64,000 nt of DNA from Thermococcus barophilus MP. GTDB taxonomy: Archaea > Methanobacteriota_B > Thermococci > Thermococcales > Thermococcaceae. Shown in pieces: positions 4,381 through 47,768 of the stretch. The DNA lies in assembly GCF_000151105.2 (NCBI RefSeq), contig NC_014804.1:1054001-1118000 (forward strand), given 5' to 3'. The stretch's first letter is position 1, and the number at the start of each line of letters is the position of its first letter. Under the pieces are notes generated by a model, which was given only the letters and a program-made list of their open reading frames with translations, was not told the origin of the DNA and did not search any database. Position numbers and translations under genes: made by a program.

Positions 4381-4701
4381 TTGTTTATAGATCCCTTTGT
4401 AATTCGCTCTATTAACAGAAGTGAGCTCCGAAAGCGAATTCTCTTGTATTTATACAATATATACCCTTCTTTTACGTATCTTGCTGAAATCGCAAGAGTT
4501 GTTCGTTCTGATCCTTCAAATGTAAAAGGAGCTCTTGTGGGGTTGGGGAACAGGTATAATGGACATAGTTCCCTTGTTAGCTTAGGATTAGTTGAAATAA
4601 TTGAAGAAAATGGATTCAAATATTATAGACTTTCTGAATATGGGAAAAGAGTTGTCGAAATGCTGAAGTCATATCAATCCTATTATAGAAAATTTATGTG
4701 A
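4381..4701 (+). CDS. winged-helix regulator next to the archaellum operon (EarA candidate)
   Basis: A 106-residue winged-helix protein. Helices cover SELRKRILLYLYNIYP, then TYLAEIARVVRSDPSNVKGAL as the helix-turn-helix, and a wing around FKYYRLSEYGKR. EarA is the known activator of archaellum genes in Methanococcus maripaludis, where it binds TACATA repeats, and homologues occur in Thermococcales. This gene's position directly before the archaellum genes, and the TACATATGTA palindrome at 5727-5744, support that identity. Translation starts at TTG behind a run of six G residues. It precedes the methyltransferase by 11 bases, so the two are probably co-transcribed. Assignment as EarA is inferred from location and fold, not from an alignment. 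Confidence 0.65.
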   Translation: MFIDPFVIRSINRSELRKRILLYLYNIYPSFTYLAEIARVVRSDPSNVKGALVGLGNRYNGHSSLVSLGLVEIIEENGFKYYRLSEYGKRVVEMLKSYQSYYRKFM

Positions 4702-5726: not shown

Positions 5727-5744
5727 TACCTACATATGTAGGTA
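5727..5744. promoter_or_regulatory. 18-bp perfect palindrome with TACATATGTA core, probable archaellum activator site
   Basis: TACCTACATATGTAGGTA is a perfect inverted repeat. Its core contains TACATA, the six-base element reported for EarA binding in Methanococcus, on both strands, and a further near-copy TACATT follows at 5743. It lies 36-53 bases upstream of the likely TATA box for the flagellin gene, as expected for an activator. That the neighbouring winged-helix protein binds here is inference. Confidence 0.65.
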
Positions 5745-5779
5745 CATTGCTATATGCTTATGCAAAAACAAAAAATTGA

Positions 5780-5787
5780 TTTATATT
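5780..5787 (+). promoter_or_regulatory. probable TATA box of the flagellin/archaellum operon
   Basis: TTTATATT, preceded by an A-rich stretch that could serve as BRE, lies about 50 bases before the flagellin ATG at 5837. It would place the transcript start near 5808, followed by the ribosome binding site GGGAGGTG at 5822. Confidence 0.5.
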
Positions 5788-33516: not shown

Positions 33517-33568
33517 GGTACAAACAATGTTAATTCATCCAAAAAATTTTTAAGTAATTATCTGATTA

Positions 33569-33590
33569 CATGTTATTAAGTGATAACATG
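33569..33590. promoter_or_regulatory. 22-bp operator-like inverted repeat over the ArsR-type gene start
   Basis: CATGTTAT and ATAACATG are perfect 8-base inverted arms separated by TAAGTG, and the right arm includes the ATG of the regulator. The position suits autorepression by the dimeric winged-helix protein encoded next. Confidence 0.55.
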
Positions 33591-33881
33591 AATGCCGAAA
33601 AGCTCGCCAAAATGCTTGATGGACTTGGACATCCACTCAGACTTAAGATAGTTGCACTGCTTGCAAGAGAAAATAGGGTGATGTACCTAAATGAGATAGC
33701 AAACAGTCTTGGGATAAGCAGGGCATTAGCTAAAGTTCACCTCAAAAAGCTTGAAAAAGCTGGGATAGTTAAGAGCAAGATCATACTTGATGAGGAGAAG
33801 GGGAAAGCTCTGAGATTTTATGAGCTTGTGCCTTTTGAAATCCATATCTCACCTGAAATCCTGAAGGAGGTGGTTGAATGA
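33588..33881 (+). CDS. ArsR-type winged-helix regulator
   Basis: A 97-residue winged-helix protein. The ArsR-like start LAKMLDGLGHPLRLKIVALL is followed by the recognition region LNEIANSLGISRALAKVHLK and a wing with KGKALRFYEL. No metal-binding Cys motif is seen, so the signal is unlikely to be a classic ArsR metal. ATG 33588 is preceded by a perfect inverted repeat that probably serves as its own operator. It overlaps the membrane protein gene by four bases; such pairs in archaea often couple a regulator with a small membrane partner. Confidence 0.8.
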   Translation: MNAEKLAKMLDGLGHPLRLKIVALLARENRVMYLNEIANSLGISRALAKVHLKKLEKAGIVKSKIILDEEKGKALRFYELVPFEIHISPEILKEVVE

Positions 33882-34168
33882 GAACAAGAGATGTTGTTAT
33901 TTTAGCAAGTTGGTTAGCTGCAATAGTTATTTCAGCTGTCATAATTATAAAAGGCGGGGCAACATACGCAAACATAGGCATAGCACTGCTTCTGTTCTTC
34001 ATGGCGAGTGGCATATCTTTTGCCGTGGGTTACTCATTATACGATACTGAAGAGCTAAAACTGTCCAAAGAACTCTCATCGCTGAATTCAAAGCTTGAGA
34101 AAATTGAAAAGAAAATTAGCAGCATAGAGGGGAAAGTTGAAAAAGTGGAGAAGTTTTTGGAAGAGTAA
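33878..34168 (+). CDS. small membrane protein with coiled-coil tail, partner of the ArsR-type regulator
   Basis: A 96-residue protein. Two membrane helices (DVVILASWLAAIVISAVIII and IGIALLLFFMASGISFAVGY) are joined by a short loop, and a cytosolic coiled coil of about 40 residues follows. ATG 33878 overlaps the regulator's stop. The coiled coil might hold the regulator at the membrane or act as a sensor, which is inference from the gene pair. No family name is evident. Confidence 0.65.
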   Translation: MRTRDVVILASWLAAIVISAVIIIKGGATYANIGIALLLFFMASGISFAVGYSLYDTEELKLSKELSSLNSKLEKIEKKISSIEGKVEKVEKFLEE

Positions 34169-43647: not shown

Positions 43648-44391
43648 TCATCCAACGTGTCCCATTTCCATTGGTGTATTTATTATCTGCTCATACTGAT
43701 CCTGAGGCAACACCTGCGGCTGATATGTTATGCCATAGTTCTCAAGGTTCCTGACAAATGCTCTCAGGTGATTTCTTGAGCCCATCATGAGGTTCTCATA
43801 AACGAACTTTATATCTTCGTTGTCGCTCTTTGCAAGCCATTCCTCCAAATCTTTGATGTCAACCTCTTCAATGAGTGCACCAACTTTGAGGGCATCCTCA
43901 ACACTTTTGCTCCCTTCAGCAACGAGCTTGTCATAAAGGGCTTGAATCTCCGGATTTGTAAACTCGCCGATGCCGTTGTCTCCCACAGGGTCAGTTAAAT
44001 TGTACTTCTCAATCAAAGCCAGCACCATGTCCATATGCGTCTGCTCGCTCCTTGTGGCAATGTTGTAAAATATCTGCAACCCCCACTTTTCATAAAGCGT
44101 CAGATAAACGTCCCTTGCAAGCTTCTCCTCCTCACGCATCCAGAGGATCCCATCAATTTCATCCTGGGTAAGCTCTTCAACCGGATATGAACTAACCAGA
44201 TCAGCAACTGCCTGGTAGCCTGTAGGTGCTGTGACCGCTCCACCAGCATTTTCAAGATTTGTCGGCTGCTGAGTTGCAGTTTTGGTGAGCGTTATTGTCT
44301 GAGTGATCGTTTCTGTGGTGGTTAAACAGCCAGCCGCTATTGTAAGCAGCATAACTCCAACCAGCATCAGACCAAACAATTTCTTTTTCAT
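43648..44391 (-). CDS. DUF2202 ferritin-like lipoprotein (copy 1)
   Basis: A 247-residue secreted lipoprotein. Lipobox TIAAGC is followed by a Thr-rich linker (TTTETITQTITLTKTATQQ). A four-helix ferritin-like DUF2202 domain holds candidate di-iron ligands: WMREEEKLARDVYLTLY, SEQTHMDMVLALIE (E-x-x-H) and LMMGSRNHLRAF. The exact function is unknown; oxygen or peroxide handling outside the membrane is a reasonable inference. Its promoter holds TTTATAAA (44444-44451) and TACATATGTA, the same element as at the archaellum promoter. A paralogue lies at 47046-47768. Confidence 0.82.
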   Translation of the reverse strand: MKKKLFGLMLVGVMLLTIAAGCLTTTETITQTITLTKTATQQPTNLENAGGAVTAPTGYQAVADLVSSYPVEELTQDEIDGILWMREEEKLARDVYLTLYEKWGLQIFYNIATRSEQTHMDMVLALIEKYNLTDPVGDNGIGEFTNPEIQALYDKLVAEGSKSVEDALKVGALIEEVDIKDLEEWLAKSDNEDIKFVYENLMMGSRNHLRAFVRNLENYGITYQPQVLPQDQYEQIINTPMEMGHVG

Positions 44392-44426
44392 GATTCACAA
44401 CCTCCATCCATATGTAACTTTGATAT

Positions 44427-44436
44427 TACATATGTA
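44427..44436. promoter_or_regulatory. TACATATGTA palindrome in the DUF2202 promoter
   Basis: This 10-base palindrome is identical to the core at 5731-5740, and a related CATATGTA follows at 44409-44416. Here it lies between the TATA box (44444-44451, minus strand) and the ATG at 44391, near the expected transcript start, so a bound protein would more likely repress than activate. Confidence 0.5.
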
Positions 44437-44510
44437 GTTCGACTTTATAAATCTTTTGGTTCACAAAATTGGGCAATATCCTTATATCCTCAAACATAGA
44501 AGGTTTAGCT

Positions 44511-45200
44511 ATGAAAGCTGATATCAAAATCGCCTTGGTATTCATTGTTCTTGCAAATATAATGAAAAAGTCGCCTGTGTATCTTCTTCTCTATCTTTTC
44601 GGTTTTGCAATATTGTCTCAAAGAGCCTGGAAATCTTTACCCAAACTTCTCCTCTGGGCGTTAGTAGTTGGATTTTCGGCCGAAATTATCGGCACACATG
44701 TGTGCTTACCTTTCGGATGCTATGAATACGTAAATTTGAGACCCCAAATTTTTGGTGTTGGATTGTTTGTTCCCCTTGCATGGGGAATTTTTGGAGCAGT
44801 TGCATATCTGACAGCAAGCTATTTCTTCAGGAACTGGGGTAAAAGACTCCTTTTTGCTGCTCTTCTGATGGTCATTATTGATCTCTCTGTTGACCCAATA
44901 ATGACCTCTTGGAAAGCCTGGATCTGGAAGAGAACAACAGCCATAAACTGGTTCGGAATCCCATGGACAAATTATCTGGGCTGGTTTGTGGTATCATTGA
45001 TATTCTTCTACCTGTATGAACGTTTTTCAAGGGTTGAAGTTGAGGATGCGCTTTTAAAGCTCGGCCCTCCGATTTACCTTCTGGAAATGCTAACATTCAT
45101 GATTTATGCTCCCCAGAGCGTAAGAACTCCTACAGAGATTGCGTTTTTGATGTCTTTAGCTGTGATTCTCCCGCTGTATTTATGGAGGCGGATGAAATGA
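44511..45200 (+). CDS. CruF/DUF422-type carotenoid biosynthesis membrane protein
   Basis: A 229-residue membrane protein with about seven helices. Family blocks: GFSAEIIGTHVCLPFGCYEY, LFVPLAWGIFGAVAYL, DLSVDPIMTSWKAWIW and INWFGIPWTNYLGWF. In haloarchaea the family hydrates bisanhydrobacterioruberin. No other carotenoid gene is in the window, so the substrate here could be another isoprenoid. The frame upstream of ATG 44511 includes a probable TATA box (CTTATATCC), so the mRNA is likely leaderless. Its stop overlaps the nitrilase ATG. Confidence 0.75.
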   Translation: MKADIKIALVFIVLANIMKKSPVYLLLYLFGFAILSQRAWKSLPKLLLWALVVGFSAEIIGTHVCLPFGCYEYVNLRPQIFGVGLFVPLAWGIFGAVAYLTASYFFRNWGKRLLFAALLMVIIDLSVDPIMTSWKAWIWKRTTAINWFGIPWTNYLGWFVVSLIFFYLYERFSRVEVEDALLKLGPPIYLLEMLTFMIYAPQSVRTPTEIAFLMSLAVILPLYLWRRMK

Positions 45201-47045: not shown

Positions 47046-47768
47046 TTAGGGTTTTTCACCCATTCCTTGACCCTTTTCCATCGGACTGCTGATTATTTGT
47101 TCATATTCATCCTTCGGCAAAACCTGTGGCTCGTATGTTACTCCTCTGTTCTTCAGTTGACTTACAAATGCCCTGAGGTGATTTCTTGAACCCATCATAA
47201 GGTTTTCGTATACCGTTATTATGTCAAGTTTATTTGTTTCTGCTATTCTTTCTTGGAGATCGATGATATCGACTTCCTCTATCAGGGCACCTACTTTTAG
47301 GGCATCAATTTCGCTCTTCATGCCCTGCTCTATCAGTTTGTTGTATAAGTCTTGGAGCTTTTTATTTTTGAACTCTCCTATCTTTGAATCTGCTGTTGGA
47401 TCGGGCAGATTGTACTTCTTAAGCAACATCCTAACGGACTCAACATGGGTTGTTTCACTTTTGGCAATATTGCTGAATATCTGCAATCCCCACTTTTCGT
47501 AGAGTTTAGTGTAAACATCATGAGCGAGCTTTTCCTCCTCAACCATGTACAGAAGACCATCCTTTTCAGCTTCAGTTAGCTCTCCAGCCGGCAAGGACTC
47601 AATGTAAGATTGCAACTCTTGGGTATTTACATTACCATTTGTGTCAGCGGTTAAAGGAATTGTATCAGTTACCGTTGCAGTTTCGGTCTTTGTTTCCCCT
47701 ACACAGCCAGAAGAGCTCACTACTCCAAGCAAGATCACGATAACAAACAATGCCAGTAGCTTTCTCAT
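47046..47768 (-). CDS. DUF2202 ferritin-like lipoprotein (copy 2)
   Basis: A 240-residue paralogue of the protein at 43648-44391: signal peptide with SSSGC lipobox, Thr-rich linker and the same DUF2202 domain (YMVEEEKLAHDVYTKLYEKW, SETTHVESVRMLLKKY, LMMGSRNHLRAFVSQL). The glutamates and histidines match copy 1, so the di-iron site is conserved. Its promoter carries one TACATA on the minus strand at 47787-47782. The two copies bracket the carotenoid-type, nitrilase, CPY and DUF4405 genes. Confidence 0.82.
   Translation of the reverse strand: MRKLLALFVIVILLGVVSSSGCVGETKTETATVTDTIPLTADTNGNVNTQELQSYIESLPAGELTEAEKDGLLYMVEEEKLAHDVYTKLYEKWGLQIFSNIAKSETTHVESVRMLLKKYNLPDPTADSKIGEFKNKKLQDLYNKLIEQGMKSEIDALKVGALIEEVDIIDLQERIAETNKLDIITVYENLMMGSRNHLRAFVSQLKNRGVTYEPQVLPKDEYEQIISSPMEKGQGMGEKP

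What the first reader, a model, noticed from the sequence alone, without database searches (positions are those of the whole stretch)
44405..44440. The archaellum-promoter palindrome recurs in a DUF2202 lipoprotein promoter
TACATATGTA at 44427-44436 is identical to the archaellum element, with a second CATATGTA at 44409-44416. By base composition I estimate less than one chance copy of the 10-mer in 64 kb, yet two appear and both are in promoter regions. Here the site overlaps the expected transcript start, suggesting opposite control: archaellum on, lipoprotein off. The paralogous DUF2202 promoter at 47.8 kb also has one TACATA.
Basis: partly seen in the sequence, partly recalled or inferred. 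Interest (0 to 1): 0.66.

Follow-up and report, generated by a model that had tools for sequence, protein, structure and literature searches.

The report
An ArsR operator, not archaellum's
The repeated DNA word next to this lipoprotein gene is real, but it is half of a 26-base mirror-image docking site that follows a different switch protein (an ArsR-like regulator) across heat-loving archaea, so the match to the archaellum promoter is shared spelling rather than shared control.

Summary
TACATATGTA occurs twice in the window (0 expected) and four times in the 2.06-Mb genome, and CATATGTA lies at 44409-44416. The interpretation mostly does not hold. The two words at the DUF2202 gene are the arms of one dyad, CATATGTAA-N8-TTACATATG (44409-44434), about 10 bp downstream of the TATA box, across the predicted transcript start. 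The genome's other two copies sit in the same dyad before a second DUF2202 gene and a secreted-protein gene at 684-687 kb. The archaellum copy has CC..GG flanks, no second arm, and lies 40 bp upstream of its TATA box, as published EarA sites do. Across 94 Thermococcaceae genomes the dyad tracks an ArsR-like winged-helix regulator (54/0/2/19 in near-complete genomes, p about 1e-15). It does not track EarA (p = 1), and ten near-complete EarA-less genomes keep it. Regulator homologues fetched by protein alone carry the dyad in Archaeoglobales (6/6), Bathyarchaeota (4/4, weaker) and one bacterium (exact). Best reading: an uncharacterised ArsR-type operator and small redox/ferritin-like regulon, probably repressed. 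The regulator gene is followed by a small membrane coiled-coil protein gene in nearly every locus examined. The gene neighbourhood was published in 2015; I found no report of the operator.

The parts
44409..44434 (-). Operator dyad CATATGTAA-N8-TTACATATG (+ strand CATATGTAACTTTGATATTACATATG); contains both words of the finding
   Evidence: conserved in 62/94 Thermococcaceae genomes
44427..44436 (.). TACATATGTA, the 10-mer of the finding; its outer two bases are not part of the conserved dyad
44444..44451 (-). TATA box TTTATAAA of the DUF2202 promoter; 15 nt before the 28-mer search pattern, as in nearly all relatives
44452..44460 (-). BRE-like ACCAAAAGA upstream of TATA, conserved at this spacing in relatives (ACCGAAAA)
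44401..44405 (-). Shine-Dalgarno GGAGG, just after the operator
43648..44391 (-). DUF2202 (PF09968, E 1.4e-62) lipoprotein gene controlled by the operator; ferritin-like by its PDB relative MJ0754
   Evidence: close paralogue matches 3q4n at 3.1e-63
47046..47768 (-). Paralogous DUF2202 gene without the dyad (one stray TACATA only)
44511..45200 (+). Divergent CruF-like carotenoid biosynthesis gene (PF04240); considered as alternative target, less likely by promoter geometry
5731..5740 (+). Archaellum-promoter TACATATGTA: part of the EarA repeats ACCTACAT/ATGTAGGTACAT, 40 bp upstream of the arl TATA box (5780-5787)
   Evidence: motif published in PMC10665913
4381..4701 (+). EarA gene (PF07381, 1.6e-33), the archaellum activator; not the binder proposed here
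33552..33571 (+). Related dyad AAGTAATTATCTGATTACAT just upstream of the paralogous ArsR gene
33570..33881 (+). Paralogous ArsR-like regulator (37% identical to the operon regulator); a possible cross-binder
33878..34168 (+). Its partner: small protein with N-terminal hydrophobic segment(s) and C-terminal coiled coil

Best explanation
The site is the operator of an uncharacterised ArsR-type winged-helix regulator (gene at genome C1:682731-683033, outside the window), not an EarA/archaellum site. SHOWN: a 26-bp inverted repeat, CATATGTAA-N8-TTACATATG, lies at fixed spacing just downstream of the TATA box of DUF2202 and a few other genes across Thermococcaceae. Its presence matches the regulator's, not EarA's, and it reappears upstream of regulator homologues in other phyla. 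INFERRED: a regulator dimer (symmetry), perhaps more than one, binds the dyad over the transcript start, blocks RNA polymerase recruitment or opening, and releases it on a metal, redox or envelope signal. The regulon is then induced: secreted ferritin-like DUF2202 proteins, a secreted 154-aa protein and, in some loci, a cytochrome-b-like DUF4405 protein. A small membrane coiled-coil protein encoded directly downstream of the regulator may report the signal or tether the regulator. The shared TACATATGTA spelling with the arl promoter comes from two winged-helix proteins having similar TACAT half-sites.
For: Dyad in 62/94 Thermococcaceae genomes at up to 2 mismatches; reversed control in 1. At up to 1 mismatch none of 115 genomes has the control. 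Regulator versus dyad in near-complete genomes 54/0/2/19, p 7e-16; EarA versus dyad 46/16/10/3, p 1. 45 of 61 regulator genes lie within 5 kb of a dyad. TATA-to-operator distance is 14-16 nt in 75 of 77 promoters. Columns left free in the search (positions 13-17) are also conserved, with BRE and TATA fixed. Downstream genes are of unrelated families. Homologues fetched by protein only: dyad in 6/6 Archaeoglobales with 0-3 mismatches, in 4/4 Bathyarchaeota with 3-4 mismatches just upstream of the regulator gene, and exact in a Thermoactinomycetaceae bacterium after a TTGACA box; rarely or never reached in 100 shuffles each. Dyads occur without DUF2202 where the regulator is present (G021, G037, G093). 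Regulator followed by a TM/coiled-coil gene.
Against: Three draft genomes (G054, G055, G064) have the dyad and DUF2202 but no detected regulator, and two incomplete ones have the regulator without a dyad. Inside Thermococcaceae DUF2202 presence correlates as well as the regulator does, so only the distant homologues and the three DUF2202-less genomes separate them. The Bathyarchaeota and bacterial homologues belong to a sister branch nearer the window paralogue. Shared ancestry of genomes and possible duplication of promoter plus signal peptide inflate the statistics. Repression and signal are not shown. The regulator lacks the classical ArsR metal-box cysteines.
Confidence: 0.8

Rival explanations
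1. One reading: EarA (4381-4701) binds TACATATGTA at both promoters, activating the archaellum and repressing the DUF2202 lipoprotein.
For: Identical 10-mer in both promoters; two in the window against 0 expected. The arl copy is itself conserved in relatives. EarA is next to the arl operon.
Against: Dyad independent of EarA (p 1 in near-complete genomes); ten near-complete EarA-less genomes keep it, sixteen EarA-bearing genomes lack it. Different flanks and geometry. Outer TA of the 10-mer not conserved at DUF2202. The published EarA motif lies 9-11 bp upstream of BRE (PMC10665913).
Confidence: 0.05
2. The regulator and dyad are right, but the protein activates transcription from the dyad or has a dual role.
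For: Position alone does not prove repression; other Thermococcales regulators have dual roles (CopR, PMC7830388).
Against: Dyad overlaps the predicted start, downstream of TATA, in 75 of 77 promoters; activator sites such as EarA and CopR lie upstream of BRE.
Confidence: 0.12
3. The window's paralogous ArsR-like protein (33570-33881), not the 683-kb regulator, binds the DUF2202 dyad.
For: Its own promoter carries a related dyad AAGTAATTATCTGATTACAT; it is nearest to Bathyarchaeota proteins with a similar dyad.
Against: Paralogue-like matches occur in genomes that have no dyad (e.g. G040, G075, G080, G091) while the dyad follows the operon regulator.
Confidence: 0.07
4. The dyad spread only by duplication of a promoter plus signal-peptide cassette and has no regulator of its own.
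For: Two T. barophilus promoters share the signal-peptide region too (63% over 35 residues).
Against: Dyad conserved across genera and before unrelated genes, and found with regulator homologues in Archaeoglobales, Bathyarchaeota and a bacterium; most arm columns reach 1.7-2.0 bits while nearby columns vary.
Confidence: 0.03

Closest known systems
Thermococcales gene neighbourhood arCOG04002 (cytochrome-b-like) / arCOG03957 (ferritin-like) / ArsR arCOG01679 / arCOG07800 / arCOG08354, e.g. CL1_0239-CL1_0246 (Makarova et al. 2015, PMC5898192)
   Same: Very likely the same genes: ArsR-family regulator, ferritin-like proteins, secreted proteins, DUF4405 protein, aldehyde ferredoxin oxidoreductase; proposed there to serve iron-dependent electron transfer
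   Different: The passage read there describes no operator, regulon or regulator-operator pairing; it was found here
EarA / arl promoter (Pyrococcus furiosus, PMC10665913; Methanococcus maripaludis)
   Same: TACAT half-sites; winged-helix type regulator; promoter location
   Different: EarA sites carry A(C/G)(C/G)TACA(T/C), lie upstream of BRE and activate; this dyad is downstream of TATA and independent of EarA
ArsR/SmtB family winged-helix regulators (PF01022)
   Same: Regulator matches PF01022 at 1.9e-13; small protein; symmetric operator over the core promoter
   Different: No metal-box cysteines (KEWYVYEL in place of the ELCVCDL type); paired with a membrane coiled-coil protein; ligand unknown
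SdpR/SdpI of Bacillus subtilis (recalled from memory, a lead only)
   Same: An ArsR-type repressor beside a membrane protein gene
   Different: SdpI is a multi-pass immunity protein; here the partner is small with a coiled coil; no sequence link was tested beyond a weak SdpR profile match of the regulator
CopR copper regulon (PMC7830388)
   Same: Thermococcales regulon with a palindromic site near core promoters
   Different: CopR consensus TTNNCAWWWTGNNAA lies upstream of BRE; CopR is an Lrp/AsnC protein

Membership tests
EarA regulon | Motif A(C/G)(C/G)TACA(T/C) about 9-11 bp upstream of BRE | tested here: not met
   DUF2202 dyad flanks are AT-rich, outer TA not conserved, dyad is downstream of TATA (motif)
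EarA regulon | Site present where EarA is present | tested here: not met
   46/16/10/3 in near-complete genomes, p 1
EarA regulon | EarA binds the site | not testable with these tools
   needs EMSA or ChIP
ArsR-family regulon | Regulator has the ArsR winged-helix domain | tested here: met
   PF01022 E 1.9e-13
ArsR-family regulon | Symmetric operator overlapping the promoter of the regulator's own operon | tested here: met
   operon C1:682.7-684.4 kb; 45 of 61 regulators within 5 kb of a dyad
ArsR-family metal sensors | Conserved metal-binding cysteines in the DNA-binding region | tested here: not met
   52 aligned regulators: one Cys, replaced by V or S in some, no ELCVCDL-type box
ArsR-family repressors | Represses, released by a ligand | not testable with these tools
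   inferred from operator position only
DUF2202 (PF09968) | Full-length match to PF09968 | tested here: met
   E 1.4e-62 over model positions 1-161 of 162
Ferritin-like proteins | Relative of a solved ferritin-like structure | tested here: inconclusive
   Paralogue at 684 kb is similar to MJ0754 (3q4n, 3.1e-63); arCOG03957 called ferritin-like in PMC5898192; metal ligands not checked
CopR regulon | TTNNCAWWWTGNNAA upstream of BRE | tested here: not met
   CATATG has two, not three, W between CA and TG, and the dyad is downstream of TATA

The most novel reading that the evidence does not exclude
An ancient two-protein signalling module shared by archaea and bacteria: a cysteine-poor ArsR-type repressor and a small membrane coiled-coil partner, using nearly the same operator (ATGTAA-N8-TTACAT) from Thermococcales and Archaeoglobales to Bathyarchaeota and a thermophilic bacillus relative, with the membrane partner relaying an envelope or redox signal to the repressor.
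Probability: 0.3. Interest if true: 0.7.

Novelty: new member of a known kind. Interest (0 to 1): 0.5.

Why it matters
It assigns an operator, a likely regulator and a small regulon to DUF2202 and neighbouring proteins of unknown role, with a sharp promoter signature in 62 of 94 Thermococcaceae genomes that can be tested in genetically tractable Thermococcus or Pyrococcus. It removes a false link between the archaellum and lipoproteins. If the membrane partner proves to control the repressor, it would be a simple membrane-to-DNA signalling route conserved between archaea and bacteria.

Tried and rejected
EarA as binder: rejected by presence/absence, flanks and geometry. CopR: motif and position do not fit. 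Divergent CruF-like gene as main target: BRE, TATA, operator and SD line up with the DUF2202 strand as in relatives, but an effect on it is not excluded. DUF2202 paralogue at 47.8 kb as operator-bearing: one stray TACATA, no dyad. Strong autoregulatory operator at the regulator's own internal promoter: only degenerate half-sites in one clade, left open. Structure of the secreted 154-aa protein: model only partly confident (mean pLDDT 68.5), no structural match below E 0.2. Naming the organism through its plasmid: no match returned. Literature: no paper on DUF2202 or MJ0754 in the held library; a search for the operator's letters gave only unrelated papers among those listed. Transcriptome papers on T. 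barophilus and on T. gammatolerans cadmium response gave nothing that could be tied to these genes.

Full report
Observation. TACATATGTA is at 5731-5740 and 44427-44436 only, with CATATGTA at 44409-44416. Shuffles expect none. In the whole genome (C1 2,010,078 bases and C2 54,159 bases, which from memory match Thermococcus barophilus MP; could not confirm this) there are four copies against one of the reversed control. Two of them, at 684,378 and 687,516, precede a second DUF2202 gene and a 154-residue secreted protein gene.

Anatomy. At 44.4 kb, 684 kb and 687 kb the same promoter recurs: BRE, TTTATAAA, then an inverted repeat CATATGTAA-N8-TTACATATG, a Shine-Dalgarno sequence and the start codon. 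The finding's two words are the two arms. ATGTAA-N8-TTACAT is exact only at these three places in the genome. At the archaellum promoter the same 10-mer has ACC/G flanks, is followed by another EarA half-site, has no second arm and lies 40 bp upstream of the TATA box at 5780, as described for EarA (PMC10665913).

Conservation. With a first pattern and up to 3 mismatches, 59 of 94 Thermococcaceae genomes match and none has the reversed control. With the dyad and up to 2 mismatches, 62 match and one has the control. With up to 1 mismatch, none of 115 genomes in the phylum has the control and matches stay within Thermococcaceae. TATA lies 14-16 nt before the pattern in 75 of 77 promoters. In 75 aligned promoters the arms are nearly invariant, the free positions 13-17 are conserved too, and the first two bases of TACATATGTA are weak (0.31 and 0.86 bits). 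Downstream genes: 51 DUF2202, 19 of the 154-aa family, 3 of another family, plus a few unassigned.

Which regulator. The second DUF2202 operon encodes a 101-residue ArsR-type protein (PF01022). Its close homologues (E below 1e-20) and the dyad co-occur: 54 both, 0 regulator only, 2 dyad only, 19 neither in genomes at least 90% complete. EarA gives 46, 16, 10, 3, that is no association. DUF2202 itself gives 53, 0, 3, 19, so inside the family it cannot be separated from the regulator except by three genomes (G021, G037, G093) that keep regulator and dyad without DUF2202. The separating test is outside: 62 regulator relatives were fetched by protein only. All six Archaeoglobales loci (L243-L248; L247 is titled only 'archaeon' and is placed here by its 60% identity) carry the dyad upstream (0-3 mismatches), in the two read in full with secreted, DUF4405 and (in one) DUF2202 genes before the regulator. 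Four Bathyarchaeota loci carry it, with 3-4 mismatches, just upstream of the regulator gene. A Thermoactinomycetaceae locus has it exact, after a TTGACA box, before a COX1-like gene, the regulator and a membrane protein. In 100 Markov shuffles each, such matches were reached 0 times in nine loci, 1 time in L247 and 2 times in L253. A 12-sequence tree puts Bathyarchaeota and bacterial proteins on a sister branch with the window's own paralogue. Actinobacterial relatives (L251, L252 and others) and one archaeal MAG (L242) show no dyad.

The partner. In 20 of 21 loci examined by script the regulator is followed by a 66-113 residue protein with an N-terminal membrane segment and C-terminal coiled coil (segments judged by eye from the sequences); in the remaining one (L255) a similar frame overlaps the regulator's end. 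A paralogous pair with its own dyad lies in the window at 33552-34168.

Mechanism. The position over the transcript start suggests repression (inferred). The regulator lacks the classical ArsR metal-box cysteines, so the signal is unknown. The regulated proteins, secreted ferritin-like DUF2202 (relative MJ0754 solved) and cytochrome-b-like DUF4405, suggest iron or redox stress at the cell surface (inferred). Makarova et al. 2015 described this neighbourhood and proposed iron-dependent electron transfer (PMC5898192).

Verdict. The finding's sequence claim is right, its archaellum link is not. The element is an ArsR-type operator with a conserved small regulon: ordinary in kind, apparently undescribed as a regulator-operator pair, and easy to test.

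Noticed in passing
window 33552-34168: Paralogous ArsR-like regulator and membrane/coiled-coil partner with its own dyad AAGTAATTATCTGATTACAT, nearest to Bathyarchaeota pairs.
   Followed up: partly
L022:7524-7724 (-) and equivalents in L230-L263: Small membrane coiled-coil gene directly downstream of the regulator in archaea, Thermoactinomycetaceae and Micromonospora; function unknown.
   Followed up: partly
L250:1287-2319: Bacterial operon with an exact copy of the archaeal operator, a COX1-like membrane protein, the regulator and a membrane coiled-coil protein.
   Followed up: partly
L022:9388-12525: Two neighbouring T. barophilus operator promoters also share their signal-peptide region, suggesting duplication of a promoter plus signal-peptide cassette.
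   Followed up: no
window 5731-5755 and L100-L129: The arl promoter's ACCTACATATGTAGGTACAT block is strongly conserved across Thermococcaceae, wider than the published 8-bp EarA motif: an inverted pair of EarA half-sites.
   Followed up: partly
L210-L229, L080 upstream of regulator genes: Degenerate half-operators near a TATA box before the regulator gene in one Thermococcus clade, a hint of weak autoregulation.
   Followed up: partly
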